DNA of 64,000 nt, taken from positions 152,044 to 216,043 of the IMG/VR virus record IMGVR_UViG_3300032236_001859; one strand, written 5' to 3'. The number at the start of each line of letters is the position of its first letter. Within the stretch, counting starts at the first letter, position 1. A model generated the notes under the pieces. It was not told the DNA's origin, made no database searches, and saw nothing but the letters and a program-made list of their open reading frames with translations. Below, in pieces: positions 10,386 to 40,203 of the stretch. Both the position numbers and the translations under genes were made by a program. Origin of the DNA: a virus.

Positions 10386-11677
10386 GCCGGCTGGAGTTCG
10401 GGATGAGAGTGATCTGCAGGGGCATATCGTATGCGTGGCCCTGCACTGCGTGGTGCGCGTGGAGCCCGCGTAGGCGCTGGTGCTTCGTCTTCGTCAGACA
10501 TCGACTTGTACAACAAATAGCCAAGCCCGAGTACGGCGGCACCCCCCGCGCTGTACTTCAGAATCTTCACGGCCTCTGGGGATGTGACGAAATCAGTTAC
10601 CTTCTTGAAGGATTTGGAAATATCGTCGACCGACTTCGCAGTGTCTTTTACGCCGGAACCCAAGTTGGTTACCGCGTCGGATGCCTTGTCAGCAGAGCTG
10701 GTAACTTTAGACACTGAACTATCGATATTCTTCAAAGTGGACCCAGCGTCCTGAGTCAAACTCTGGACACCTCCGAGGGCACCAGTCAATGCCTTCATCG
10801 CCGGAGTGGTTTCATTGGCAGCATTAGCCACAGCACCCGCGCCCTGTTCAACTGACTTCGCAGCACCAGCAGCGGATTGCCCGACCTCGTCCACATTCTT
10901 ACGAAGAGACTTGACCCCCTCGGAGACATCCTGGCCGACCTGCTTAACTGTGCCAGTAGACGTATTGACTACATCCCGAACACCTTGATCAACTGCCGAA
11001 AGTAGACCTGGCTTTCCATCTTTGTCTTGTAGTTTCTCTTTTGTTGTCCCTGCGATGTCGTTCGCCTTGCCTAGTAAACCGGCACCATAACTTGCAGCCT
11101 CTACGCCTGCGGCAGCAGCACCTAACCCTAGTTTTTGCTTGACGACATCATTTATCCACGTGTCCTGGCGGGCACGTGATGCCAGAGGCGACAAGACTGC
11201 GTGGGCAAGCTCTGGGTCTGCAGAGGAAACAGTTTCAACCCTATTAGTGGTGGGGGAGTGAAAACTGAACTCATGTGCACCTGTCTGTGGGTTTAACTTC
11301 CACAGTGGAGATCTTGATAAATCCATTTTGCCCTCAGCGGCATCTCGGAGATGCCGTTGCGCCAACCCAAAATCCTTACCACTCATCCCATGGCGAGTTG
11401 ACTTGGTAGCCAGGGATCCCCCAAGGATCCCTGCTATTCCGGCTTCACTCCCGGCCCCGATTGGATCCTGCCCCGCAGCAGTAGCGCCTGCGTAGGTTGC
11501 ACCGGCTACAGGTAACCCCACTAACAGCGGCGCCGGGGTCCTCCCCACCAATGCACGTGCACCGGTAAGTGCAGGTGATACCCCTGATGACAGCGCATCC
11601 ATTGCTCCGATGAGCCCCCTGCGATCTGCGGCTACCTTTTTAGTCAGATAAAAAAGCATGATCTGAGCTGGACTCAT
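10382..11677 (-). CDS. 431-aa membrane-anchored coiled-coil protein
   Basis: Not recognised. The N-terminus has Gly/Ala hydrophobic stretches (LLVGLPVAGATYAGATAAG and a GIAGILGG segment). Residues about 200-360 are a long heptad-like, Ser/Val/Asp-rich helical region. A hydrophobic helix at about 374-391 (AGGAAVLGLGYLLYK) is followed by SMSDEDE and a Pro/Arg tail. The hydrophobic-helix-plus-acidic-tail ending recurs in the proteins at 24050 and 45155. It overlaps both neighbours by ATGA. A virion-internal protein entering the host envelope is a guess from this architecture. Confidence 0.75.
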   Translation of the reverse strand: MSPAQIMLFYLTKKVAADRRGLIGAMDALSSGVSPALTGARALVGRTPAPLLVGLPVAGATYAGATAAGQDPIGAGSEAGIAGILGGSLATKSTRHGMSGKDFGLAQRHLRDAAEGKMDLSRSPLWKLNPQTGAHEFSFHSPTTNRVETVSSADPELAHAVLSPLASRARQDTWINDVVKQKLGLGAAAAGVEAASYGAGLLGKANDIAGTTKEKLQDKDGKPGLLSAVDQGVRDVVNTSTGTVKQVGQDVSEGVKSLRKNVDEVGQSAAGAAKSVEQGAGAVANAANETTPAMKALTGALGGVQSLTQDAGSTLKNIDSSVSKVTSSADKASDAVTNLGSGVKDTAKSVDDISKSFKKVTDFVTSPEAVKILKYSAGGAAVLGLGYLLYKSMSDEDEAPAPTRAPRAPRSAGPRIRYAPADHSHPELQPA

Positions 11678-13761
11678 GACTGGGACTCCTGTGGAGGCAT
11701 CGGTGCAGTCTGTGCGACTTCTTCTGGGTTCTGGATCTCCGGGGTCTCAGGCTTCGCCGCCTTCGACTTCCGGATCGCACGATGGATCACACGTGCCCTG
11801 GCACGATCAAGATTACGGAATGGCTTATTGATGGCTAGACCCATGGATCCGTAGACCTGTTTGAGGACTTGGTCATGGGGGAGCCACTCACCGGGGAAAT
11901 CCGCGGGTGCCTCGCCTTCACCGAGATGAAAGGCGTAGTCGTAGCCGTGGTACCCAGGCTCCGCGACACCCTCATCAGGAAGAACGCGGACGTTGGATGA
12001 GTAAGGTGCAGGGGCCCCCTTACCCTCGGTGGGGAAATGAAACCGACGGTTGCTGTCACGTCGGACCAATACTTTACCTTCGGGATCCAAATAGACGTAC
12101 TCGGTCTTAGGAAGCAGCGCGGCAGCATCTGCCTGCTTCTTCAATGGCATCTCGGTGTGCGTGGCCAGTACGTCATCTCCGACCCCGCCTGTGAAAAACT
12201 CGGTCTCATCAAAGTAGGTGACCCCTGCGGCTTCAGCGGCACCCTCGTCATCGGGGGAGTTACCAACCATGCAGATCACGGGATCCAGAGAGAACGCTTC
12301 TTCGGCGTATTCGATCATCGCTGGAGACGGCTTCCGGCCGGCGTCGTCTTCATCGGTACAGAACACGATGTCGTCGATCTCGGGGAGGAGCTCAAGGGTT
12401 TCATCATTGAAGTCGAGGACATCGGGGAGCGTGTTCGTCCCCATGACACTGCGGTTGGTTACCCCAACGATGCGGACCCCTGCAGCCTTAAACTTCTTGA
12501 GGAGTTCTTTGACCCCTGGTTTGATCTTCTGGGTGGCCTCGAGGCCGGCGTCGTCATCCCATTCGGCGACAACGGTACCATCGAGGTCAACGAGGAGTCC
12601 TGGTGCCGACTCAGGCGTCTTGTCCTGGAACTTATGGGTTCTCATGGACCCCGAGATCTCCGCGGCATGCTTCTCGGCGAGATTGTTGGTGTGCTTGGCC
12701 ATCGTGAAGTCCCCGTTGGTTGGGGAATCCCCGCTGCGGAGGACAACCAGAACTCTGCCATCCGGGAATCTCCGGACTTCATCGAAGTAGTGGCCATGGG
12801 CGGCCTCGAGATCCTGGAGCGCCTTCACGAAGACCTTGGGGTCCTTGGGGGCATAGATGCGACGAAGACTGTTACGGTACAGTGCCCAGCCGTGATGCTG
12901 CCGGGGCACACTGGCGAGTTTCTTACCCTTGAGCTCGGGATCCTTCTTCGCCATGTCCCTGGCGGCCTCGACGAGTTCGAGGCGGACCTCGTTGGCTCTC
13001 TTGGCCCAGTCGTTCTTAGCAATGAGTTCTTTGAGCCTGGTAATCAGCGTAGCAAAGGGGATCACATCGAAATCCTCCCGATCCGGGTGTGTGGTCCCCA
13101 GTTTGCCGTCATGGACCCCAGTGAAGAAATATGTGCGTTCGCCATCGAATGCGGAGTCATCCCAGAAGTCGTTGACCCCACTTGGCCAAATCGATTCTAC
13201 GATCTCACGAGTCTCCGGAGAAATGATCTTGAGATCGGCTTCCTCGATGGCTTCCCGGATCGCGGCGAGTAACGGGGGTTCGCCGTCATCGATGCCGCCA
13301 CCGGGGAACAGGATGTAGTCGCCCTTGTCGATGCCGACGACGCCATCCTTATCGAAGGCGATGAGTTCGGATCTCGGTCGCAGGAGTTGCGATGGGGAAC
13401 CCTCGTGCTTATCGGGAGTGGGTTCGTTCTCAGCGGCTTTCTTGCCGAGACCCCTGGCGAAGCTGTGATCCCTGCGTTGTTTCGCCAAGGCGGCCTCATC
13501 AGGTTCGACATCCTTGGGTTTCGCCGGCAGCATCTTCTTCGCGTTGGTCCACACCTTCTCCGCAGGAGATGGGAGGTCGTGGTCCTCTGAGGTCCCCCTG
13601 CAGTCGCCACCACTGAACAGTTCAAGAAAGGTTTTGCCCTCGACCATGTGGGCATTGGTTGCCTTGACAGGATTCCCACCCGTTGGCGTCGCCACAGGTG
13701 TGTTGGTCACGGGGCGATCACTACCCCGCCCCGGAGATGGAATCTTGGTCTCCGCTCGCAT
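11674..13761 (-). CDS. NUDIX hydrolase - HAD phosphatase fusion protein
   Basis: 695 aa. A NUDIX box spans about 155-176: GGIDDGE, seven residues, then REAIEEADL; the usual glycine near the end of the box is Asp. A HAD phosphatase follows: DLDGT at 392-396 (motif I, nucleophile and acid-base Asp), TN at 435-436 (motif II), K477 in RKPSP (motif III) and GNSPDD at 500-505 (motif IV). Between them lies an unassigned domain (285-375) and after them another (about 548-655, with RRFHFPTEGKG). GGAGG-type ribosome-binding site in the upstream gene end; TGATG junction. NUDIX enzymes cleave nucleoside diphosphate derivatives and HAD enzymes of this type remove phosphates, so sequential action on one nucleotide or sugar nucleotide is possible. 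Confidence 0.85.
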   Translation of the reverse strand: MRAETKIPSPGRGSDRPVTNTPVATPTGGNPVKATNAHMVEGKTFLELFSGGDCRGTSEDHDLPSPAEKVWTNAKKMLPAKPKDVEPDEAALAKQRRDHSFARGLGKKAAENEPTPDKHEGSPSQLLRPRSELIAFDKDGVVGIDKGDYILFPGGGIDDGEPPLLAAIREAIEEADLKIISPETREIVESIWPSGVNDFWDDSAFDGERTYFFTGVHDGKLGTTHPDREDFDVIPFATLITRLKELIAKNDWAKRANEVRLELVEAARDMAKKDPELKGKKLASVPRQHHGWALYRNSLRRIYAPKDPKVFVKALQDLEAAHGHYFDEVRRFPDGRVLVVLRSGDSPTNGDFTMAKHTNNLAEKHAAEISGSMRTHKFQDKTPESAPGLLVDLDGTVVAEWDDDAGLEATQKIKPGVKELLKKFKAAGVRIVGVTNRSVMGTNTLPDVLDFNDETLELLPEIDDIVFCTDEDDAGRKPSPAMIEYAEEAFSLDPVICMVGNSPDDEGAAEAAGVTYFDETEFFTGGVGDDVLATHTEMPLKKQADAAALLPKTEYVYLDPEGKVLVRRDSNRRFHFPTEGKGAPAPYSSNVRVLPDEGVAEPGYHGYDYAFHLGEGEAPADFPGEWLPHDQVLKQVYGSMGLAINKPFRNLDRARARVIHRAIRKSKAAKPETPEIQNPEEVAQTAPMPPQESQS

Positions 13762-21029: not shown

Positions 21030-24000
21030 TCAGGGCACCTTGGCGTTCAGCGACATCGGGATGGCATCCCAGGTGACGCCGCCATCGAGGGTAGTCATCC
21101 CAATGATGTCGACCCCGGAAGCCGTGAGCACAGCGGCGATACCGCCGGACCAACGTGTATTCGCTGGGAAGTTGAAAGTCTGGGAACCCCCGTTGGTGAT
21201 GTGGAGGACAACCGTCTTGGAAACCCCCGATGCCGGGAGGTTCGAGAACGCCAGGGTCACCGCTCCGGTAACCGTCATGGTGATCCGCGTCGCGGTGAGA
21301 CAGTTAATCGTGATTGTCCCAGCACCCGTGTTACCAATTGCATTCACGGGTTCGTTTACGTTTTTGATAATGAGTGTGCCGCCAACGGAGACGTCTCCGC
21401 CGGCGTATATGGAGCCCAGGAGACCCATGCCACCCGCTGATGTAATGGACCCCGTCAATGTGCTCACCGATGCGGCCGCCGACGTGACTATTAAGGCGCC
21501 TGCCCCTGGGGACGCCGAAAACGCACCACCGATTTGAAGACCACCATCACCCCAGATACGAACCTTCTCAGTGGTCAAGATGGTGCCGGGGGTTGTTGTC
21601 CAGAGGCCGATGCGGGTGCCCTGTGCGGCGTCTGTCCAGTTCTCAGCAGTGAAGATCGAGACGAACCCACGCGCCGCAGATGAGTAACCCGTGGCCCCGT
21701 AACCCCACGCTGAGAGGTTGGTGATTTCATCGCCAGCCTGGAGTGCACTGGGTGCGGTCAGGGTACCCCGACATGCGCGTCCCGCGAATACCGCGTAACC
21801 GCCGCCGATGCCCATGGCGACATCGGCGAGAACACGGGTGACCCCTGCGTTACCATTACCATTGATGACCTGTGCGATTGTACCCGCAGGGGCCGCTGGT
21901 GCCGTGATCCCTGTAGCCAAGACTTTGAGGCCACCAAGGGTGCCCACACCCCCAGCAGTGAGTGCGCCACCGACGTTGAGAGCACCGCCGATGCCGACAC
22001 CACCGGTGACCACAAGGGCGCCATTGGCCGCAGTGGTCGATACCGTGGTATCCCCGAAGCGGACGAGACCCAGACCAGTCTGAATCGCGTAATTGGTTTG
22101 ACCGAAAGTGATGTCCTCGAGGAGGAGCCCATAGGCCGTGGTCAGGGTTCCCGCGGAACCCCCGAGGGATCCATAGAACAATGCCGCAGTGGTACAGGTA
22201 CCCCCCGCGGTGTCCATGTAGAACTCGGAGTCGATGCCATAGAACCCACTAAGGGTCCCCGCCGTCGTCGATACCGTGAGATCCGCACGATACCCGTAAA
22301 TGACTCCGAAGTTATATCCCCCGTACAGACGCTGGGAAACCGTGTCGCCCATGTATCGCCCATTACGGGATACCGTGGGGGTAATGTTGACTTCAAGGTA
22401 GCGTGCCGTGCGGTCCACGGTGGCATTAGGGGCATATGAGATGACTTGCTTGATGCCACCGACCATGTTGAGCGCGGAGACCCCAGTGGCCCCCACGGCA
22501 ACCGAGGTATCCCCAAGGGTGACCAAACCGGTACCCGTGTAGATCGCATAGTTCGTGGTGGCCCCAGTGATACTGGGGAGATAGAGCCCGTATCCTGTGG
22601 TGATGGTGCCCGCGGTGTACGACCAGTTGCCTCTGAACAACGATGCGGCACCAACTGTGGACCCCGCACAGTTGAATGATAACGAGGTCCGGTACCCAAT
22701 AATCGAGTTGACTGTGCCTGCTGTCTTCGTGTCAGTCAGCGTGGTGTTCTCACCCACTGCGATACTGAAGTCCTCGGCTCCCGTGAGTGCAATGGAGTGG
22801 TACTGACTATAGAACGCCCCAATCGAGGAACTCAAGGGGTTCAGGGTCACACTGTCATAGATACCGTAGACGGTCCCCGTGAGATGCCCCAGGGTGCCAT
22901 ACAGGGTACGAATGCTGCCAGTAAGATTCAGGGCACCTGGAGTCGTGCTATCCGTGGTCGCCGTGCTCGTCGAGTTCAGGGTGCCCGCAGCAAAGATGTC
23001 TCCACCGGCGCCGATACCCCCGGCGACCTTCAGCGCACCGGTGACCGCGCTAATTGACGCCGTCGTATTCGCAATGGTGAGACCACCAGTGGCCAGTGTG
23101 CTATTGTATGAGAAATTGGTGGATCCCGTGAGGATGCCGTCACCACCTCCAAACCCGACGAGACCTGTGGCCAGCGCTGCCGTGATCGTGCAACTGAGAA
23201 CCCCAAGTGCGGAGAGGTTGAGCCCAGTCCCGATCGAGATCTCTTCAATCGCACCGGGATCCGCGGAGAACCTGCCAAGGACTCGGGCTGTATTCATGGT
23301 GAGCCCAGAAGACCCCACGGCCCCATTGAGGGCACCATCAGTGATCCCATAACCACTCAGGGTGGTGGGGAGATCCGAACCAATGTGATTCCAGCTCAAC
23401 GAGGGAATATCGGTTTCGACTAGAGCTCGGAACGCAGGGACTGCAGAGGATCCCAGGGGATCACTGGGCCCCGCGAAGACAAGACCCGGGGACTGAACCG
23501 CCCATTCCGCGCTGAGATCCCCTAACGTGGTCACCGGGGAGAACGTGATGCTGAACTCAGGTGGCAACACGAGTCCAACGGAGGTCACCGTACCGGTACC
23601 CAGGATGGGCGCCCATGCCGAACCCGTGTAGTGGACATAGGAATGCGTGGCGCGGTTGAAGACAAAAACGCCTTCAGCTGCTGGGGTGAACACCCAGGCG
23701 CCGTCACGATATGCGGCTAAAGCATTGGGATGCCCGAACCAGGCCCCCGTGGGGAGTGTGCCCGTGATCCAGCGCTGTTCTGCACTCGGGGACCCTGGGG
23801 GTGTATTTGTGATGGCTTGAACGGGGCCACCCCAGAACCCATCAGCGATTCTGCGATCGACGACCTGACGTGTGGTCAAATGGGCATCTGCGGTAGCCGC
23901 GATACCCGCGATATTGGCTACGAAGGGGTGGAGACCGTCGGTGGTGACAACGTCAGTCTCCAGCGTGCTCGTCGCGATAGGATTTGTTGCGGAGACTCGA

Positions 24001-24050
24001 CGCAGCTGCCTGCCGTCAAAGAATACCGGCTTCTGAGGAGTGCTTGGCAT
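21030..24050 (-). CDS. 1006-aa tail fibre / surface protein with DUF2793-like domain
   Basis: Residues about 76-148 (PGSPSAEQRWITGTLPTGAW, then FTPAAEGVFVFNRATHSYVH and YTGSAWAP) match the small DUF2793 module found near the N-terminus of phage fibre proteins. After it comes SWNHIGSDLPTTLSGYGITD, a fibre motif, and then long Gly/Thr/Ala repeats such as VTGGVGIGGALNVGGALTAG that recur several times (about 340, 700, 890) and suggest a triple beta-helix. The C-terminus is a strand-rich head. It overlaps the 156-aa gene by TAATG and abuts the 1800-aa gene. Confidence 0.82.
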   Translation of the reverse strand: MPSTPQKPVFFDGRQLRRVSATNPIATSTLETDVVTTDGLHPFVANIAGIAATADAHLTTRQVVDRRIADGFWGGPVQAITNTPPGSPSAEQRWITGTLPTGAWFGHPNALAAYRDGAWVFTPAAEGVFVFNRATHSYVHYTGSAWAPILGTGTVTSVGLVLPPEFSITFSPVTTLGDLSAEWAVQSPGLVFAGPSDPLGSSAVPAFRALVETDIPSLSWNHIGSDLPTTLSGYGITDGALNGAVGSSGLTMNTARVLGRFSADPGAIEEISIGTGLNLSALGVLSCTITAALATGLVGFGGGDGILTGSTNFSYNSTLATGGLTIANTTASISAVTGALKVAGGIGAGGDIFAAGTLNSTSTATTDSTTPGALNLTGSIRTLYGTLGHLTGTVYGIYDSVTLNPLSSSIGAFYSQYHSIALTGAEDFSIAVGENTTLTDTKTAGTVNSIIGYRTSLSFNCAGSTVGAASLFRGNWSYTAGTITTGYGLYLPSITGATTNYAIYTGTGLVTLGDTSVAVGATGVSALNMVGGIKQVISYAPNATVDRTARYLEVNITPTVSRNGRYMGDTVSQRLYGGYNFGVIYGYRADLTVSTTAGTLSGFYGIDSEFYMDTAGGTCTTAALFYGSLGGSAGTLTTAYGLLLEDITFGQTNYAIQTGLGLVRFGDTTVSTTAANGALVVTGGVGIGGALNVGGALTAGGVGTLGGLKVLATGITAPAAPAGTIAQVINGNGNAGVTRVLADVAMGIGGGYAVFAGRACRGTLTAPSALQAGDEITNLSAWGYGATGYSSAARGFVSIFTAENWTDAAQGTRIGLWTTTPGTILTTEKVRIWGDGGLQIGGAFSASPGAGALIVTSAAASVSTLTGSITSAGGMGLLGSIYAGGDVSVGGTLIIKNVNEPVNAIGNTGAGTITINCLTATRITMTVTGAVTLAFSNLPASGVSKTVVLHITNGGSQTFNFPANTRWSGGIAAVLTASGVDIIGMTTLDGGVTWDAIPMSLNAKVP

Positions 24051-27183: not shown

Positions 27184-30100
27184 TCAGGCGTGCTGTAAGG
27201 TGCAGGCTCCACCGGCACATGCCATCTCGGGTTGCGCCCCCTTGGTACCATCGGTTTCCTCAACCATCAGGGAGTAATCGACATCGCGCCAGTTCCGGGA
27301 TAGACGTTCCCAGAGATGGAGATTGTTGACTTCCTTGAGGCAATACGTCATCCGCTTCAGAGCAGCGACACGATCTGCATCGGGGGTAGATGTGGTCAGC
27401 AACGCTGGGTACTGGAAGTAATTTGTGGCGAACTGTACGGCCCTGCGGACCCAATCCTTCTTGAGTTCGTGGACATGCTCGTAGGCCTCACGGATGGCAT
27501 CGGGTAGCGCGTTGGGATCCGCGGGATACGGAACTCCGTTGGCAAGAATCGAGGCTTCACCGAGCCCCATCACGGTATCGCATGCCAACCAGAGGTTGTT
27601 ACCGAAGGCGTGGAGCCCATCGACGATGAGACCAGATGCAAAGAAGGCACCGCGGCCATAGCGCTCCAGGATTTCACTCTCGGTACGGACCTCACAGAAC
27701 GGGGCCTGGGGATAATCGAGATCCCCTGAGGTCCCCAGGATACTGACTCCCGTGAAGGACTCCCGGTGCTCGTAGATGTAACGTGCGGCGTCTTCCTCTT
27801 GGTTCTGACGAATCGTGATCGTGTTGGAGACATTGTGGTGCAGCCAGGGCTTCACAGCACGCTCGGGCACACTGCCAGCTGCAACCCAGTTGTCCTGGGT
27901 GAGCTTGACGTACTCGAGCTGCTTGAGCCCATTGACCTCACGCCGCGTCAGGGCTTCATCGGAGGCCTCGATGCAGAACGTGATCACCGCGGTGTTCCCG
28001 TTGGGTTCCCACACCGAGCGTTCAACGGCATCGGGGTTGTGAACCTTGAAGTATTGGAAGGGGGCCTCGTTGACGTTGGCCTGGGCTCTGCGGAAGTACC
28101 GCTTGGCGTGTTGAGCATGGATCCCACTCGATGTCCCGAGAAGGCATGACGTTGATCCCGCGGGTTTAACACAGGTCGCCCGTGCCGTGGGCCGGATACC
28201 CAGCCGGGGTGCCAGATCAGCGTTGACATCGAGGATGAGCTTGGCGAGGTCACGCTGCCGCTGGGGATCAAAGGACTGCGAGGGGTTGTCCATCATCCCA
28301 GTCATGGAGACCCCGAGGAGGGCCTCACGTTTCGCGATACACTCGCTGACATTACCGAGGTAGTCGAACTTGGTATAGCCGGCCTGGAGAGTGCCCAGGA
28401 TCGCCGCTGCGGTGCACGCACGTCCCCAGTCCTTATCGGTACGGCAGGCCTTGGCGTTGACTTCACAGAGATTACAAAAGCTCCACCCTGAGATCTCTAC
28501 GTTTGCATATTCAACGACTTCTACGGAATGTTCCCCGTTGATCTCATCGAGATCTTTGTAGGAAATCGCTGGGTACATCCCGGTCTCCACGCAGTTCGAG
28601 ACACTATGACCTCCTGTCCAGTAAGTGTGACTCTCATTGTCAACTGTGATATCATACACCTCCATATCACCAAGCGAAGTAACTGATCGAATAGCATAGG
28701 TATCCTGCGTGCGCCCTGAAATCCGTATGTCGCATGCAGCTGATAAGCGAGATACCTTGCTAGAGTGGATAAACCCTATCAGTTTTGCGAACTTACAACG
28801 GTCGACGCTGATATTGATGTCGTAGCTTTCTTTGCACTCATACACCCCATTACTAAACTCGACGTCGTGCGCCCTGTTAGTAGTGAAATAGCTGCGAATA
28901 CCGAGAGATGACAACGCAGTCTGTACATCATCTCGCAAACCAGGGCTACACGTCTTCAGCGTAACTCTATTAGCAACGACACTTCCATTTGCAGAGTACA
29001 GCCCACGTAAAACAGAACACAGGATATCCTGCCCAGATTGTAAAAACCGCTGTGGGATCCTACGCGATGGGATGGTTGGCATGTCTTCTTGGGTGAGCAA
29101 CGAGAAGTCTTGAACTTTGAACAGCCTGGTGCTCCCACCGTAACCCTCCCTGGATACCCATGGCATACAGTTGAAAATCTCCTGATCGCCCGCACCTATG
29201 TTGAGGAGTAGACCTCCCCCAGCCTTGTGCCACGTGCCATCGCCAAGCAACAACCCAACCATAATGTTTGCATCGTTATGCACAGGGGCTTCGCCGACAT
29301 CCGCTGTAAGCACGTCTATAGATTCTGCCAACCCAACCTCGACCTTCTCCCCATGCTGCTCCACCCGATGATTAGCCGTACCTACAAATACACCTGCAGA
29401 CGTGCGGTATTCCGATACCGGCTTTATTCCAGTGCTCCATTTCCTCAAAACACGAGTCCAGCCCTCGCGGCTCCAAATCACGCTACCTACATCGATATCT
29501 GCAAAAGTGCGCAAACCATCGGGGGTAAGAACAGTAGCACAGGCGGGTTGACAGGGGTTCACCATGAGCTCGGAGCTATCCGACCACACGAACCCGGGCT
29601 CCCCGTACTGGCGGCGTGCCAGCATGAAGATGTCATGGAAGGCTTCCCAAGTAGTCTCACCCCGGATCAACATCGCCGAGTTATTAGAACGCGCCCGCTG
29701 GGGGTTGTCCTGCATCCAGTTCCCAGTCTTCGCGTTCATCATTTCGGGGTCATCAACACTGAACAAGCAAATCGTGGCGCTACGACGAACCCCACCGGCG
29801 AGGACGGCATCCGAGGCGTGCATGATGATGTCGTAGACATCGATGGGGCGGAGGTGGCAGTCTTCACCATGGCACCGGGTCAACGCGGTATCAAGGACCC
29901 CACGAATCTTTTCCAGGGATGCCGAGAGAGGCCCAGGCCCTGGAGCCTTGCCTGCACCCGTGCTCAGACTCGAGCCCTGGTTACGGATGCGCGAGTAATC
30001 AAAGCTGACATGGCTGCCGACATAATCGGAGAAGAACCCGGGGTGCTGGAAGGACACCTTGGCATCATTGCCTGGTGCGGTTTCTTCGGCGAACTCTTGC

Positions 30101-30594
30101 ATCCCGACACCCAGGCATCCATAGGAGGCCAGGAGAACACCGAGGGCATCAGCCCAGCCTTCAACACTGTCGGCAACCGTGAACACCTTGATCTGGTGTT
30201 TATCCACCGCGATTAACTTGGGCAGCTTGGCGACGTGGTGGCGTTGCACCGAGAACCCGGTGCCGCAACCACAGAGCAGAAGATATAGGCATTCCTGGAA
30301 GAACCGGGGGCGATCCGCATAGGATCCCGAACAATTGAACGCTCTGGCCTCTTTCCTCAAGATAGGGGAACCACCGAATTGAAGTGCTCTCTGGGAGCCC
30401 AGGACCAGGCCATCTTTCATGGCTTCCAGACAGAAACTCAACTCGGCTTCGATATCAAACCCTTTATATTTCGTGCGGTGCATTTCGATGACGCGTTCAA
30501 AACTCTCACTTGGTATTTCGCGTCGATTCAGTTCAGGTAAAAATCGTCCATAAGACGCCGCGAACTTGTATGCTGCTAGTGATTGCGTGGTCAT
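27184..30594 (-). CDS. nrdJ: Class II (B12-dependent) ribonucleotide reductase with intein
   Basis: Reduces ribonucleotides to deoxyribonucleotides for phage DNA synthesis. The precursor is about 1136 aa; after removal of the 320-aa intein the enzyme is 816 aa, near the monomeric class II type. Visible motifs: ARAFNCSGSY (N-terminal redox Cys), LLLCGCGTGFSVQ, AVLAGGVRRSATI, the active-site NPC split by the intein (NP|intein|CVETGM), GSTSCLLGTSSGIHAQHAKR, and a C-terminal CAGGAC redox pair. There is no NrdB subunit gene nearby, in line with class II. I preferred the ATG at 30594, preceded by GGAGTGTTAT, over the one four codons upstream. An upstream element at 30627-30669 and a terminator at 27033 frame it as its own unit. 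Confidence 0.9.
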   Translation of the reverse strand: MTTQSLAAYKFAASYGRFLPELNRREIPSESFERVIEMHRTKYKGFDIEAELSFCLEAMKDGLVLGSQRALQFGGSPILRKEARAFNCSGSYADRPRFFQECLYLLLCGCGTGFSVQRHHVAKLPKLIAVDKHQIKVFTVADSVEGWADALGVLLASYGCLGVGMQEFAEETAPGNDAKVSFQHPGFFSDYVGSHVSFDYSRIRNQGSSLSTGAGKAPGPGPLSASLEKIRGVLDTALTRCHGEDCHLRPIDVYDIIMHASDAVLAGGVRRSATICLFSVDDPEMMNAKTGNWMQDNPQRARSNNSAMLIRGETTWEAFHDIFMLARRQYGEPGFVWSDSSELMVNPCQPACATVLTPDGLRTFADIDVGSVIWSREGWTRVLRKWSTGIKPVSEYRTSAGVFVGTANHRVEQHGEKVEVGLAESIDVLTADVGEAPVHNDANIMVGLLLGDGTWHKAGGGLLLNIGAGDQEIFNCMPWVSREGYGGSTRLFKVQDFSLLTQEDMPTIPSRRIPQRFLQSGQDILCSVLRGLYSANGSVVANRVTLKTCSPGLRDDVQTALSSLGIRSYFTTNRAHDVEFSNGVYECKESYDINISVDRCKFAKLIGFIHSSKVSRLSAACDIRISGRTQDTYAIRSVTSLGDMEVYDITVDNESHTYWTGGHSVSNCVETGMYPAISYKDLDEINGEHSVEVVEYANVEISGWSFCNLCEVNAKACRTDKDWGRACTAAAILGTLQAGYTKFDYLGNVSECIAKREALLGVSMTGMMDNPSQSFDPQRQRDLAKLILDVNADLAPRLGIRPTARATCVKPAGSTSCLLGTSSGIHAQHAKRYFRRAQANVNEAPFQYFKVHNPDAVERSVWEPNGNTAVITFCIEASDEALTRREVNGLKQLEYVKLTQDNWVAAGSVPERAVKPWLHHNVSNTITIRQNQEEDAARYIYEHRESFTGVSILGTSGDLDYPQAPFCEVRTESEILERYGRGAFFASGLIVDGLHAFGNNLWLACDTVMGLGEASILANGVPYPADPNALPDAIREAYEHVHELKKDWVRRAVQFATNYFQYPALLTTSTPDADRVAALKRMTYCLKEVNNLHLWERLSRNWRDVDYSLMVEETDGTKGAQPEMACAGGACTLQHA
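28594..29553 (-). other. Intein with LAGLIDADG endonuclease domain, inserted in the reductase
   Basis: 320 aa in frame, from C1 (CQPACATVLTPDG, block A) to N320 (TGGHSVSN, block G), followed by the extein Cys. Block B is TANH at 59-62, block F VYDITVDNESHTYW at 299-312. The residue before the last Asn is Ser, not His, an accepted variant. Two LAGLIDADG-type helices, MVGLLLGDG near 98-106 and VLRGLYSANG at 181-190, suggest a homing endonuclease, perhaps active. It disrupts the NPC active-site motif, so the reductase depends on splicing. The region is visibly AT-richer than the exteins, a sign of later arrival. Confidence 0.9.
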
Positions 30595-30626
30595 ATAACA
30601 CTCCATGTAGTCGTTGGTTTTTGTGT

Positions 30627-35492: not shown

Positions 35493-35945
35493 CTACTTGG
35501 TCAGCGCGGTGTCCACGAGGGCATCCATCAGGGAATCCCAGTCGGGGTACTTGATCAGGCTGGGTTCAATGCTGGGGCCTCCAGCGGTCAATGAGGACGC
35601 GGGATCCAGGGAGGCCATGAGATCGAGGCGGACACCCCTGACGTACTCGGCGAGGAAATCGTATTTGTCGACGAGCTCGGCTTCGGCCTGGGCGAGTTCC
35701 CCGACGGCATACCAGGCGTGTCTGGCGTAACCCAGCCTGGCCTCGACGAGGAGGGCGCGTGCACTGCCGACGTGCTTGCGCGCACAGTCCAGGCATGTCG
35801 GCCTATTGGCGAGCTCAGACTTGATCTGCTCGATTCCAGCATCGAAGTCGACGGGGGCTGGCTTGACGCCGAACTCGACCTCCATGGTACGCGTGCGAAG
35901 CAGTGGGGTCGAGTCCTTGGTGGTGTCTGGATCGGTTTGCGACAT
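35493..35945 (-). CDS. Unknown 150-aa protein with CxxC-KH motif
   Basis: The motif CLDCARKHVGSARALLVEA at about 51-69 is a Cys pair followed by Lys-His and a helix, seen in small phage proteins of unknown role. The rest is helical (YARHAWYAVGELAQAEAELV). CTAGGAGCCCACCC precedes the ATG. It follows the glycan-modification genes in the same transcription unit; a link to them is only positional. Confidence 0.65.
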   Translation of the reverse strand: MSQTDPDTTKDSTPLLRTRTMEVEFGVKPAPVDFDAGIEQIKSELANRPTCLDCARKHVGSARALLVEARLGYARHAWYAVGELAQAEAELVDKYDFLAEYVRGVRLDLMASLDPASSLTAGGPSIEPSLIKYPDWDSLMDALVDTALTK

Positions 35946-35955
35946 GGGTGGGCTC

Positions 35956-37452
35956 CTAGAATTGTTTCATGCGTGGATTCCTGGCGTGGCAAGCCTTGCA
36001 CACCAGCGGCAACCCTTGGAGGCCGATGGCATCGTAGCCCCCTCTGGCAACCCTCGTCTTATTCACTCGCCAATTCGACAGGATGTCTGCCGGGGTATCC
36101 CTAAGGACATTCCCGGCCTGTATGGTGTTCTTGAAGTCCGCACAGCAATGAATCACGGTGCCATCGTTTCGGACGATTAACTCGTGGTCCTGCCGATGAC
36201 AGATCCCGAAGTCACCTGGACCCACGTTATCGGGGAGATCCTTGTGCTCGCGCCTGAGATCCAACCCAGACTCCCGGATCACGATGTGCGAATAGGTTTT
36301 CCTTAACTCCCGTGCCGCAGCGGCGTCCTCATGTGAGTACGCGCTCCAAACGACCTCATCGAAGTCGGCTAGATAACTTGCCTTCTCTGGATCCCTGGGT
36401 ATCAGCTTACCATTGGTCCACAAGTTGAACTTAACTGGTAGCATGCGTTGCTTAATTTTACCAATGGTCTCCAGTACCTTGTCTAATTCTAACAGGGGTT
36501 CGTTATAGAAGTGAAAGGCGATGTGCCCCCGGAACCCCTGGGTGACCATGTAGGCAGCGAACTCCACAATGCTCTCAGGGGTCAACGCAGTGGCCTGGGG
36601 GTCACGTGGGATCTCATTGATGGGACACCGGGAATGAACCCCTGCGAGATTGCAAGTAGTCCCGACCTCAAAGCACAGGTATCTGATCTCCGCGGGGCTC
36701 CAGAGCTGCCAGCGCCGCCCATTGATCGGTGGCTCGATGACCACTGGTGGCGGAACAGGAAGGAGGTCAACACGGGGGTCATGTTTGATCAAGGGTTCCT
36801 GGGGATGCCACCACATGACCTCTGACCACGTACGCCCAATCGTGGATCTCAGGGTCCCCTGCGCCGCGATGTGCTTGCGGACCCCATAGAACCTATGGGT
36901 ACGGTGGAATCCCCTGAGAACTTGATCTGGACTCCTCGCATTCCGCGTCATCTCGATGTAGATCTCAGCCAACTTGGACACCTTGTAGAGGATGCAATGC
37001 GTTCTCACGGCACCACGGACCACGACGAGGTCGTCAGTGAGCGCTGCAGGTGGTACCTGGTGCTCACCACCACAGTAGAGCCCATAGGCGTCTGAGGGAA
37101 CCCTGGGGAGTACATCTGACAGTACGGTGAGGAAATCCGGGGAGAACACACAGTCATCCTCAATGAGCAGCGCCCACTTGGCATCAGACATCATCATGGA
37201 CTCATACGCCATGAGGTGGCTGACATAGCACCCGAAGTCCCCTGGGCGATTGAACCATTCAGGCGGCAACTTCGGCCGCATCAAGGATTGGTCAAAACCG
37301 TAGAAGGGGGGAAGCCAGTCAGATGGGATGACTGCCTTGTCGGCTTCACGACGGAAAACCTCGAGCCGATCTGGGGTACGCCGCAGCGTCAGGACGCCTC
37401 GCCAACCCACCGCTTGTGTCAAGTAATCCAGGGAACGCTCTGGTGCAGACAT
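35956..37452 (-). CDS. GT25 glycosyltransferase fused to a radical-SAM/SPASM domain
   Basis: 498 aa. Residues about 18-225 match family 25 glycosyltransferases: GVLTLRRTPDRLEVF, GDFGCYVSHLMAYESM at 72-87 and the catalytic-type acidic motif LLIEDDCVF at 97-104. Residues about 255-490 look like a radical-SAM enzyme with a SPASM tail: FEVGTTCNLAGVHSRCP, FHFYNEPLLELDKV (the GEP-type motif), NLWTNGKLIP, then CxxDHELIVRNDGTVIHCC, GNVLRD, and a final CKAC. The usual CxxxCxxC is replaced by C268 and C277 eight residues apart, with C261 just before. GAGGTAACCCCGTG precedes the ATG. It probably acts on a glycan or glycopeptide; the substrate is unknown. Confidence 0.8.
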   Translation of the reverse strand: MSAPERSLDYLTQAVGWRGVLTLRRTPDRLEVFRREADKAVIPSDWLPPFYGFDQSLMRPKLPPEWFNRPGDFGCYVSHLMAYESMMMSDAKWALLIEDDCVFSPDFLTVLSDVLPRVPSDAYGLYCGGEHQVPPAALTDDLVVVRGAVRTHCILYKVSKLAEIYIEMTRNARSPDQVLRGFHRTHRFYGVRKHIAAQGTLRSTIGRTWSEVMWWHPQEPLIKHDPRVDLLPVPPPVVIEPPINGRRWQLWSPAEIRYLCFEVGTTCNLAGVHSRCPINEIPRDPQATALTPESIVEFAAYMVTQGFRGHIAFHFYNEPLLELDKVLETIGKIKQRMLPVKFNLWTNGKLIPRDPEKASYLADFDEVVWSAYSHEDAAAARELRKTYSHIVIRESGLDLRREHKDLPDNVGPGDFGICHRQDHELIVRNDGTVIHCCADFKNTIQAGNVLRDTPADILSNWRVNKTRVARGGYDAIGLQGLPLVCKACHARNPRMKQF

Positions 37453-37459
37453 CACGGGG

Positions 37460-39889
37460 TTACCTCGTCATGAAAGTGTAGGGGCCGACACCATCCCGGA
37501 AGTCCCAGGCCGAGCCGACCAGTGTCATCGTTGGCGGTGTCTTGGGGTCTCCTGCCTCGCGAGCCTTCGCCGCGGGATCAAAGTACCACCAGGGGAGTTC
37601 GACGAAATCTTTGGCGCGGATGTTTCCTGAGAGCACGGAGTCCAGGGCTAGATCAACGGTCTCCTTGGCTTTGATCCTGGCCTTGCAGGAGTCAGCCCAG
37701 GCCTCGATGGTAACTGAGCCATAGGCTGCACCGACAACCCTGGATCGAACCTTACCATCGAAGTCCTTGAATCCAAAGGCACCAGCACCAATGGCGCAGA
37801 GTGCACTGGGGTCACGTATGACTTCGACGTCGGCATCGATGCAGAGGCCCCCGACGCCCATGCGGAGTGCTGCTGGCTTCGCGATCTCGTTGAGGACATC
37901 GTGTGGCAACTCGGCGACAGTGACGCCTAGATCGTCTTCATAAAAACTGGTGACCATCGTGGCGGTCTCCGGGGTGTCCTGCCACAGGTTGACATCCCAG
38001 CCCAGGGACTCCAGCAACTCGATGTTCTTGGCAACCGTGGCGGCGACTTCACCCTCGATCTTGGTGCCGATGGCCATGATGTGGATAATCTTGGGGATCG
38101 TGGCCTCATCTGCAGTCGGGGGATCCAGGGGCTCTAAATCGAAGCCCTCGAGATCGGAGAACCCCCCGGCCTGTTTGAGCAGCCTGAGGTACAAGCGTTC
38201 CTGTGGGGTATAGGTGCCCGTGGCGGGTTCCCCCCAGTACCGAATACGCTTGGGTTCAATCTTGGGTGCGATGTGGGTGTCGATGCCTGTGGTCACAATG
38301 GTATCAGCCCAAGTGCGAGCCCATCGAATGGCCTCGGCTCCAGTGGATAGCCCCCAGGTCTCGTGGACCACCGGGGGTTGCAGGCGACGCTTGGCGTAGG
38401 CGGGATCCCAGACATCTGGCTTGTTCGCACTGATGTGGCGCAGCCGTGAGAGCACCTCGGCGTAGCGGGCACCCTGCGCGGGGTTCTCGAGCACCCTGGG
38501 TTGGATGAGGACGACTCTCCAGGGCTTCAGCATGGCCAGACCGATCTCGAGGTCTTCCAGGGCGCGGGGATGCTGAGGGTTCAGTACCCAGTAGTCGGTG
38601 CGGTCCCCGACGGGGTAGCCATCGAGGCGTGGGAAGTTGATTCGGATGACGACGTCATCGGATCGCATGCCGTCATCCCGCCAGCCCTCACCTGCATTGG
38701 CAGTGGATCCATTGCCAACAATGAATGCACGTCGGCTACCATCATGCTTGTCGGTGTCTATCTTGAGGGGGCGTGTGGTCGCCGGGATATTCCAGGCCCC
38801 ATTACGAGGCGGGATCCCCGCGGCGGCCAGCGCTTTGTCCTCGAGTTCGACGAGGCGTTCAGTGGACTTCCCAGCGGGGGCGACTGCGAGCTCAGCGGTA
38901 TAGGCGTCCCAGGCCGCCTTGACCTCGGCGATACCGAGACCAGCGGAGTAGCCCCAGGCGAGATCCCGCAAAGAATCTGTTAGTATAGGGGGTGCTATTC
39001 GAGGTTGTGTGGGCTTCGCGGGCTCCTTGAAGTGGCCATCATAGAGCCCAGCCGAGGACTCCCTGGGGTTCACCTTGGAGTCATTGGTGGCCTGGGCCCG
39101 GGCATCGATGAAGGACTTATAGGGGAACGCGGTGAGCCCAGAGATCTGGGTGGTATTGAATACCTCGAATCCATGGTGAAGGAACTCGACCTGGAGCTGG
39201 GTGAACAATCCATTGAGGTACTCGAAGAGTGTGTTGTTCTTGTCGGCGACTGTGGCATCGACGACCTGATCATGGTTGTACGCCTTCTTGGGATCCATCT
39301 TGAAGTCAGCACCGATGAGGTAGACCCTCTTGAACCCCAGGATGTAGAGGATCCGCATCGCGGCGACCATGGTGCTCCGACCACCCCTGCGGTGATCATC
39401 GCCTTCCTGGCCCCAGTTGATGGTATCCTCATGTAACCAGGTCTTGGCATCAAACTTGTCATTGCGCCGGATGAACCAGGTGTTCGGGCAATCCTTGGGG
39501 GTCCGCACGGGGTGGTCCCGTAACGGCATGTCCTGATAGGCCAGAGGATAGAACTTCTGGATACCGGGATCCAGCCAGATCGAGTTCAGGAAGCGATGGG
39601 GTTCATCGAGGCCACACCAGAGCTGGGGACGCCAGCCCTGGGCAGCATTGTTGACCGCCATCGTGATGATCCCAGGCGTCGTTGAGAGCGCTTTGAGATC
39701 AATGGCACCTGCGCTGGGGCCGCCACAGACCAAGAATGCAGTGGCGCCAGCGTAGGCGTGTCCCAACCAGGCGTTCTCCATCTGTGATGTAAAGAACACG
39801 GCGGGCTGGGAACGCAGGATGCGCCCAGCCCGGGCTTCAGTTGCCGTGATGATGTTGAAGGCATCGTGACGCCCGGGGTGGGTGGTCAT
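37460..39889 (-). CDS. Three-domain glycosyltransferase: MAF-like, GT29-like, GT32-like
   Basis: 809 aa. Residues about 50-250 resemble the 6-hydroxymethylpterin/MAF (DUF115-type) fold: FLVCGGPSAG at 52-61 and GGRSTMVAAMRILYILGFKR followed by LIGADF. Residues about 387-570 resemble sialyltransferase-like family 29: FIVGNGSTANAGEGW with DDVVIRINF (L-type motif) and STGAEAIRWARTWADTIVTT (S-type motif). Residues about 598-800 resemble family 32: IPKIIHIMAIG and AALRMGVGGLCIDADVEVI, with the DxD at 685-687. GGAGTTAAGC ribosome-binding site. It probably builds a short glycan, on the phage particle or on a host surface, which the sequence does not settle. Confidence 0.75.
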   Translation of the reverse strand: MTTHPGRHDAFNIITATEARAGRILRSQPAVFFTSQMENAWLGHAYAGATAFLVCGGPSAGAIDLKALSTTPGIITMAVNNAAQGWRPQLWCGLDEPHRFLNSIWLDPGIQKFYPLAYQDMPLRDHPVRTPKDCPNTWFIRRNDKFDAKTWLHEDTINWGQEGDDHRRGGRSTMVAAMRILYILGFKRVYLIGADFKMDPKKAYNHDQVVDATVADKNNTLFEYLNGLFTQLQVEFLHHGFEVFNTTQISGLTAFPYKSFIDARAQATNDSKVNPRESSAGLYDGHFKEPAKPTQPRIAPPILTDSLRDLAWGYSAGLGIAEVKAAWDAYTAELAVAPAGKSTERLVELEDKALAAAGIPPRNGAWNIPATTRPLKIDTDKHDGSRRAFIVGNGSTANAGEGWRDDGMRSDDVVIRINFPRLDGYPVGDRTDYWVLNPQHPRALEDLEIGLAMLKPWRVVLIQPRVLENPAQGARYAEVLSRLRHISANKPDVWDPAYAKRRLQPPVVHETWGLSTGAEAIRWARTWADTIVTTGIDTHIAPKIEPKRIRYWGEPATGTYTPQERLYLRLLKQAGGFSDLEGFDLEPLDPPTADEATIPKIIHIMAIGTKIEGEVAATVAKNIELLESLGWDVNLWQDTPETATMVTSFYEDDLGVTVAELPHDVLNEIAKPAALRMGVGGLCIDADVEVIRDPSALCAIGAGAFGFKDFDGKVRSRVVGAAYGSVTIEAWADSCKARIKAKETVDLALDSVLSGNIRAKDFVELPWWYFDPAAKAREAGDPKTPPTMTLVGSAWDFRDGVGPYTFMTR

Positions 39890-39891
39890 GC

Positions 39892-40203
39892 TTAACTCCT
39901 GCGAGTCTTTTTCTTCTTGGCGTGCTCACGACGAGCCCGCGCCTTGATGATACCGCTGCGCTCCCTGAGGAGCTTGAGCTGACGGTTCTGCTCAGCGGTA
40001 CGTGCGGCGACAATGCGTTGCCGGCGCAGTGCCCTGGCCTTCTCCAGGGCTTCATCGCGGCTGCCGGGGTGATCCCCTGTGGCCTTCTCATAGGCCATGC
40101 GTTCCTCGGGGGTCAGGATCCCAGGTGTGGCCTCGGGCTTCTCAGGGGTACCGACCACAGATGCCGTCGCGGCATCAATGACTGCTTTGAGATCAGTGCT
40201 CAT
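39892..40203 (-). CDS. Small basic helical protein, 103 aa
   Basis: The C-terminal 60 residues are Arg/Lys-rich and helical, ending KARARREHAKKKKTRRS, which suggests nucleic-acid or polyanion binding. The start overlaps the 199-aa gene by ATGA. Not recognised. Confidence 0.65.
   Translation of the reverse strand: MSTDLKAVIDAATASVVGTPEKPEATPGILTPEERMAYEKATGDHPGSRDEALEKARALRRQRIVAARTAEQNRQLKLLRERSGIIKARARREHAKKKKTRRS

What the first reader, a model, noticed from the sequence alone, without database searches (positions are those of the whole stretch)
37460..39889. Three glycosyltransferase-type folds in one 809-aa protein
MAF/DUF115-like, sialyltransferase-like and GT32-like segments are in series. 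The first two types are linked to nonulosonic acids such as sialic or pseudaminic acid. Together with the neighbouring enzymes this could form a phage route to a surface glycan.
Basis: partly seen in the sequence, partly recalled or inferred. Interest (0 to 1): 0.65.

Follow-up and report, generated by a model that had tools for sequence, protein, structure and literature searches.

The report
Phage three-domain glycosyltransferase, middle part degenerate
A large tailed phage makes one long protein out of three sugar-transfer enzyme modules in a row, but the middle one (a relative of sialyltransferases) has lost its two catalytic histidines while still being kept by selection, so it is probably not a three-step enzyme.

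Summary
Window 37460-39889, MINUS strand, is a real 809-aa gene with a good ribosome-binding site, conserved at 94% and 80% identity, in the same domain order, in two related phage records. Residues 31-274 belong to a large phage/prophage DUF115 (MptE-like)/CST-I-like family (leave-out HMM E 7.5e-69). Residues ~380-585 are GT29-like and ~594-809 GT32-like. A second structure model gave confident folds for the first and third domains only; the middle rests on sequence.

All three orthologues lack the GT29 motif-III His (kept in 13/13 other phage GT29s) and the catalytic motif-VS His (12/13). The GT32 domain keeps DxD but not two other conserved elements. Yet the GT29 domain is under strong purifying selection (dN/dS ~0.1). 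NeuB and CMP-sugar synthetase were not found in the three records, although 5 of 7 viral records with intact GT29s have the synthetase. A three-step nonulosonic-acid route is unlikely.

Best reading: a phage glycosyltransferase whose N domain works, with a non-catalytic GT29-like module and a doubtful GT32-like one, in an operon beside fibre genes with an exchangeable cassette. Known kind, new variant.

The parts
37460..39889 (-). 809-aa protein P0001: DUF115/CST-I-like + GT29-like + GT32-like
39896..39900 (-). AGGAG ribosome-binding site, 6 nt before the ATG
   Evidence: read directly
39068..39799 (-). N domain, residues 31-274: phage DUF115/MptE-like, CST-I-like; all invariant residues of the family alignment kept
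   Evidence: leave-out HMM E 7.5e-69; alignment A4; PHROG 4603 24/24 members; MptE-like 23/24 and CST-I 18/24; CstI/CstII by profile E 8e-4; model pLDDT ~90
38753..39019 (-). linker, residues 291-379, poorly conserved
   Evidence: 70% identity to L002
38135..38752 (-). GT29-like domain, residues 380-585
   Evidence: HMM/hhalign; PF00777 matched by 16/16 members of A5; ST3Gal1 by a profile that includes this domain, E 1.7e-10; dN/dS 0.09-0.11. Fold not modelled with confidence
38573..38719 (-). sialylmotif-L-like stretch, residues 391-439 (VGNG...DVVIRIN...VGDRTDYWVLN), kept
   Evidence: alignments A3, A5
38198..38245 (-). site of GT29 motifs III and VS, residues 549-564 (IRYWGEPATGTYTPQE): both conserved histidines absent
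   Evidence: consensus (H/y)-Y-(Y/W/F/h) and H-x4-E from PMC8433944
37463..38110 (-). GT32-like domain, residues 594-809
   Evidence: leave-out HMM; BLASTP to the GT29-GT32 neighbour gene in L003, 53.9 bits vs at most 26.2 in 500 shuffles; model pLDDT ~80 over 601-750; PDB fold matches led by GT-A enzymes incl. Och1
37829..37837 (-). DxD (Asp685-Ala-Asp687), kept
   Evidence: alignment A7
35956..37455 (-). downstream cassette in this phage: GT25 + SPASM, 499 aa; replaced by unrelated genes in the two relatives
39892..40203 (-). 103-aa gene just upstream, 91% identical in L003
40200..40871 (-). 223-aa gene, same operon, 51% identical in L003
41142..42881 (-). GT2 + Capsule_synth protein, 579 aa, same operon
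   Evidence: dN/dS 0.135
35493..35945 (-). 150-aa gene on the far side of the cassette, conserved in L002 and L003 (68-72%)

Best explanation
A soluble glycosyltransferase encoded by a tailed phage with a record of 216 kb. The N-terminal DUF115/CST-I-like domain is the working transferase: it binds a nucleotide-activated sugar supplied by the host and transfers it in the cytoplasm. The GT29-like domain keeps the donor-binding sialylmotif-L pattern but has lost both catalytic histidines, and acts as a non-catalytic module that binds glycan or nucleotide or positions the acceptor. The GT32-like domain keeps DxD and may be weak, altered or inactive. The protein works with the GT2/capsule-type enzyme of the same operon and an exchangeable tailoring enzyme (here GT25+SPASM). 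The most likely target is a late phage protein such as the neighbouring fibre-like proteins, decorated before assembly, as Maf proteins glycosylate flagellin in the cytoplasm. SHOWN: gene, domains, missing residues, purifying selection, cassette exchange. INFERRED: that the N domain is active, that the GT29-like domain is dead as an enzyme, and the target.
For: N domain: keeps every family-invariant residue and has dN/dS 0.11-0.15. GT29: both His missing in 3/3 orthologues, while the first is kept in 13/13 and the second in 12/13 others, yet dN/dS is 0.09-0.11. GT32: DxD kept; IHxVW and D..R not. Recurrent fusion of the same N domain with GT32, GT8-like, GT2, GT9-like and methyltransferase domains points to glycan work. 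Operon and cassette exchange. Fibre/tail setting: PHROG tail-fibre matches at 21030-24050 in the window, a tape-measure gene near the family member in L061, collagen-like and large unnamed genes beside it in L184. Maf precedent: PMC4065374.
Against: No activity data. The CstII catalytic His has no clear counterpart in the N family, and DUF115 also includes a diphosphokinase (MptE, own knowledge). No acceptor identified; most of the large neighbours of family members matched no PHROG. Near-invariant Tyr222 is Phe here, a hint that the N domain may be altered too. The GT29 fold was not modelled with confidence.
Confidence: 0.4

Rival explanations
1. Same enzyme anatomy, but the target is the host envelope: the operon changes the surface glycan of the infected cell to block rival phages (superinfection exclusion).
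For: Glycosyltransferase clusters in jumbo phages are described and interpreted this way, with polymorphic content between close relatives (PMC7824862 section 3.4.10). The operon holds GT2+Capsule_synth and GT25 (LPS-type) domains, and the cassette differs in all three phages.
Against: No sugar-nucleotide synthesis was seen: NTP_transferase and epimerase families are absent from the three records. The genes lie among fibre/tail genes in this phage and in some relatives.
Confidence: 0.3
2. One reading: three active transferases in series, two using nonulosonic acids, forming a phage route to a surface glycan.
For: Three domain types in series confirmed; intact GT29s in other viral records travel with CMP-sugar synthetase and NeuB-type genes (synthetase in 5/7 GT29 records vs 3/42 records with only the N-type family, Fisher p 5e-4, records partly fragments and not independent). 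The host could supply the CMP-sugar.
Against: Both catalytic His missing in all orthologues; GT32 motif losses; no NeuB or CMP-synthetase in this phage record or the relatives.
Confidence: 0.12
3. The N domain is not a transferase but a nucleotide/pterin-type diphosphokinase (MptE sense of DUF115), and the protein serves another pathway.
For: The only direct Pfam match of the N domain in this protein is MptE-like; some BFVD structure neighbours are named MptE-like.
Against: The same family matches CST-I (18/24), the PHROG sialyltransferase family (24/24) and CstI/CstII sequences, and is fused repeatedly to glycosyltransferases.
Confidence: 0.08

Closest known systems
Phage DUF115/MptE-like proteins of uncultured Caudovirales (PHROG 4603; BFVD A0A6J7XC21, A0A6J5PVH5, A0A6J5S274)
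   Same: N domain clearly of this family; fusions of it with GT32 and other domains recur
   Different: A GT29-like domain between the DUF115-like and GT32-like parts was found only in this phage and two relatives
Maf flagellin glycosyltransferases (DUF115)
   Same: Pfam DUF115/MptE-like relation of the N domain (Pfam matches below cut-off)
   Different: No flagellar setting; no nonulosonic-acid synthesis genes in the record; direct comparison with Maf not made
GT42 sialyltransferases CstI/CstII
   Same: Profile of the N family matches them, E 8e-4; Pfam CST-I in 18/24 members
   Different: Remote; catalytic His not identifiable in the family
GT29 sialyltransferases (ST3Gal1, and phage GT29s such as L021, L255)
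   Same: Sialylmotif-L pattern and S-motif STG, homologous over the domain
   Different: Motif III His and motif VS His missing here
GT32 / DxD glycosyltransferases (Och1, PF04488)
   Same: Fold match of the model and DxD
   Different: IHxVW and D..R elements lost; no direct PF04488 hit
Jumbo-phage capsular polysaccharide modification clusters (PMC7824862)
   Same: Operon of polymorphic glycosyltransferases in a large phage
   Different: No sugar-nucleotide synthesis genes seen; genes sit with fibre genes

Membership tests
Phage DUF115/MptE-like (PF01973, PHROG 4603) | Match to family profiles | tested here: met
   HMM of 15 other phage members E 7.5e-69; PHROG 4603 24/24. But PF01973 curated cut-off 34.6 not reached (16-18.5 bits)
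Phage DUF115/MptE-like (PF01973, PHROG 4603) | Family-invariant residues (GPS, NN, RP, GxDF, Y204, N218, N245) | tested here: met
   alignment A4; near-invariant positions that differ: L60A, Y222F
GT42 (CST-I) sialyltransferase | Sequence relation to CstI/CstII | tested here: met
   family profile E 8e-4 to 1.8e-3; Pfam CST-I best 0.0023; weak
GT42 (CST-I) sialyltransferase | Catalytic histidine | tested here: inconclusive
   no conserved His at the aligned place, alignment there uncertain
Maf flagellin glycosyltransferase | Transfer of nonulosonic acid to flagellin | not testable with these tools
   no biochemical data
GT29 sialyltransferase | Homology and sialylmotifs L and S | tested here: met
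GT29 sialyltransferase | Motif III (H/y)-Y-(Y/W/F/h) | tested here: not met
   R-Y-W in 3/3 orthologues, H in 13/13 others
GT29 sialyltransferase | Motif VS H-x4-E, catalytic base | tested here: not met
   T/A/V (or the adjacent Tyr) at the place in 3/3; H in 12/13 others
GT32 (PF04488) | DxD in GGxxxDxD | tested here: met
GT32 (PF04488) | GT-A fold | tested here: met
   model pLDDT ~80 over the core, PDB matches to GT-A enzymes incl. Och1 E 5.7e-4
GT32 (PF04488) | Conserved IHxVW and D..R | tested here: not met
   HIMA/HIMS and NEIAK in 3/3 orthologues
Nonulosonic-acid pathway | NeuB and CMP-sugar synthetase genes | tested here: not met
   absent from G000, G001, G002; records may be incomplete
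Phage three-domain protein of this window | Same domain order in related phages | tested here: met
   L002 and L003

The most novel reading that the evidence does not exclude
A pseudo-sialyltransferase: a GT29-like domain without catalytic histidines, kept by strong purifying selection as a binding or positioning module between two other glycosyltransferase-type domains in one phage protein.
Probability: 0.35. Interest if true: 0.5.

Novelty: new variant of a known kind. Interest (0 to 1): 0.4.

Why it matters
Phages are rich in unannotated glycosyltransferases whose targets are unknown. This case shows that domain lists alone mislead: one module of three has lost its catalytic residues but not its selection. 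It also ties a large, barely annotated phage/prophage DUF115 family (hits mostly in Phycisphaerae and Verrucomicrobia assemblies) to fused glycan enzymes and an exchangeable cassette site, and shows that intact phage GT29s often carry their own CMP-nonulosonate-type genes, which makes donor and target testable.

Tried and rejected
First AlphaFold2 run on the three orthologues alone: useless (pLDDT 29.5). Full-length alignment with GT29-only rows (A6): the GT29 rows slid onto the N domain, so they were left out of the second run, and the GT29-like part stayed unmodelled; in the alignment used (A10) the three GT32-only rows also fell outside the GT32 core. C-part alignment A9 misplaced GT29 tails. 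PDB search with P0001 alone and with the GT29-like or GT32-like part of the orthologues alone: no relative. tblastn of P0001, whole or N part, against GenBank phages: none. Scan for GT29-GT32 relatives in genome contigs: none. Idea that the middle domain is a recognisable duplicate of the N domain: profile comparison 0.3%, rejected. Idea that the GT29-like part is decaying: dN/dS 0.09-0.11, rejected. Idea that the GT25+SPASM neighbour is homologous to the GT-like+radical-SAM gene of L184: no BLASTP similarity. Phosphoheptose-isomerase hint at 11674-13761: the PHROG stretch lies on the HAD domain, so no heptose route is claimed.

Full report
OBSERVATION. The reported interval is one open reading frame on the minus strand, 809 aa, starting at 39889 and ending at 37460, with AGGAG six bases before the ATG. 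The window is the last 64 kb of a 216,043-base viral record. Two further viral records carry full-length orthologues, L002 (80%) and L003 (94%), with the same domain order. Nothing was found in GenBank phages, even for the N part alone at E up to 10.

DOMAIN 1 (residues 31-274). Direct Pfam evidence is weak (MptE-like 16.1 bits, cut-off 34.6). A DNA pattern scan brought 72 viral loci with a related motif. An HMM of 15 diverse members, excluding the orthologues, hits P0001 at E 7.5e-69. In a 24-row alignment that includes the orthologues (A4), 23/24 members match MptE-like (best 5.3e-7), 18/24 match CST-I, 24/24 match PHROG 4603 'alpha-2,3-sialyltransferase' (best 1.4e-12), and the profile reaches GT42 CstI/CstII sequences of the PDB at E 8e-4. 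A second AlphaFold2 run with 40 rows models this domain at about 90 pLDDT. Genome hits lie mostly in Phycisphaerae and Verrucomicrobia assemblies, often several per genome, a weak hint to the host range of the family.

DOMAIN 2 (residues ~380-585). PF00777 is sub-threshold here (13.5 bits) and in L002 (20.3 bits; cut-off 23). A profile of this domain from two orthologues with three other proteins (A3, 5 rows) reaches porcine ST3Gal1 over nearly its full length at E 1.7e-10 and CstII at 2.7e-6. A profile of 12 other phage GT29-like sequences, excluding the orthologues, hits P0001 at E 1.5e-6 and L002 at 2.9e-10 (search space 24,736), hhalign 98.2% against ~0% for the reversed control; all 16 members of A5 match PF00777. 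The profile of the orthologues alone finds nothing in the PDB. The fold of this part is not confidently modelled.

LOST RESIDUES. GT29 motif III is (H/y)-Y-(Y/W/F/h) and motif VS is H-x4-E, whose His is the catalytic base (PMC8433944, PMC10225777). In the 13 other sequences the first His is present in 13 and the second in 12 (one has Met). In all three orthologues of P0001 the motif reads R-Y-W and the VS stretch G-[TAV]-Y-T-P-Q-E, with no His. The sialylmotif-L pattern and the STG of motif S are kept.

DOMAIN 3 (residues ~594-809). No direct PF04488 hit. The region 385-729 aligns with a neighbouring GT29-GT32 gene in L003 (26% identity, 53.9 bits against a maximum of 26.2 in 500 shuffles), whose GT32 part matches PF04488 at E 2.6e-9. 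An HMM from four other proteins hits P0001 at 4.8e-6 for a space of 2e7. The model is about 80 pLDDT over the core and its PDB matches are led by DxD GT-A glycosyltransferases, including Och1 (E 5.7e-4) and the PBCV-1 capsid glycosylation enzyme (E 4e-3). DxD (685-687) and the terminal DGVxP(F/Y) are kept; the IHxVW tryptophan and the D..R pair are replaced (HIMA, EIAK). The protein ends just after DGVGPYTF.

SELECTION AND MOSAICISM. dN/dS against L003 and L002 is 0.11 and 0.14 (N domain), 0.09 and 0.11 (GT29), 0.21 and 0.29 (GT32). So the GT29-like part is not decaying. Fourfold-site divergence between the window and L002 copies is 25% in the N domain and 51% in GT29 (permutation p 5e-5): the segments have different histories, suggesting exchange within the gene.

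SURROUNDINGS. The genes around it form a close-packed minus-strand series. Directly downstream lies a cassette: GT25+SPASM here, GT29+GT32 with a further C-terminal part in L003, a protein with a Methyltransf_24-like part in L002, with no mutual BLASTP similarity at E 1e-3 and homologous flanking genes. Upstream is a GT2+Capsule_synth protein. The window also holds a tail-fibre-like gene (PHROG matches at 21030-24050). Family members in other phages lie near a tape-measure gene (L061) and beside collagen-like and large unnamed genes (L184), most of which had no PHROG match.

FUSIONS. The same N domain is fused elsewhere to GT32+GT9-like+Methyltransf_24 (L096), GT32+Methyltransf_24 (L150), GT32 (L100), GT8-like (L184) and GT2 (L215) by Pfam (L100 and L184 partners below cut-off), and by reading to a methyltransferase in L078. 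Viral predicted structures also hold long MptE-like and DxD proteins of uncultured Caudovirales. The kind is therefore known; the GT29-like domain in between was seen only in these three phages.

NONULOSONIC ACIDS. NeuB, CMP-sugar synthetase, NTP_transferase and epimerase families are absent from the three records (controls ring). Of seven viral records with a GT29 keeping both His, five have a CMP-sugar synthetase and four of those five a NeuB-family gene; among 42 records with only the N-type family three have a CMP-sugar synthetase (Fisher p 5e-4; records are partly fragments and not independent).

CONCLUSION. Anatomy confirmed; route not supported. The best reading is a phage glycosyltransferase with one likely active domain, a non-catalytic GT29-like module and a doubtful GT32-like module, acting on a late phage product or, second, on the host envelope.

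Noticed in passing
window 35956-37455; L003 4377-6296; L002 12452-14929: Three mutually unrelated glycan/tailoring genes occupy the same slot between conserved flanking genes in three related phages: an exchange hot spot.
   Followed up: partly
window 35956-37455; L184 5632-7020: GT25 fused to SPASM here; in another phage a gene beside a DUF115-GT8 protein matches radical SAM families after an N-terminal part that looks like a glycosyltransferase. No BLASTP similarity between the two.
   Followed up: partly
window 27184-30606; L002 20335-22440; L003 8370-10922: By reading, ribonucleotide reductase carries an intein-like insert at one site here, at another site in L002, and none in L003.
   Followed up: no
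L021 (G008) 30-47 kb of its contig; also G050, G051, G053: Viral records with intact GT29 carry CMP-sugar synthetase and NeuB-family genes, in several cases within a few kb of the GT29.
   Followed up: partly
L095 6001-7599, L097 6001-7608: DUF115-like domain followed by a C-terminal part that looks like a 2-oxoglutarate dioxygenase; no Pfam match obtained.
   Followed up: no
window 11674-13761: 695-aa protein with NUDIX and HAD domains next to a gene with weak tail/tape-measure matches.
   Followed up: no
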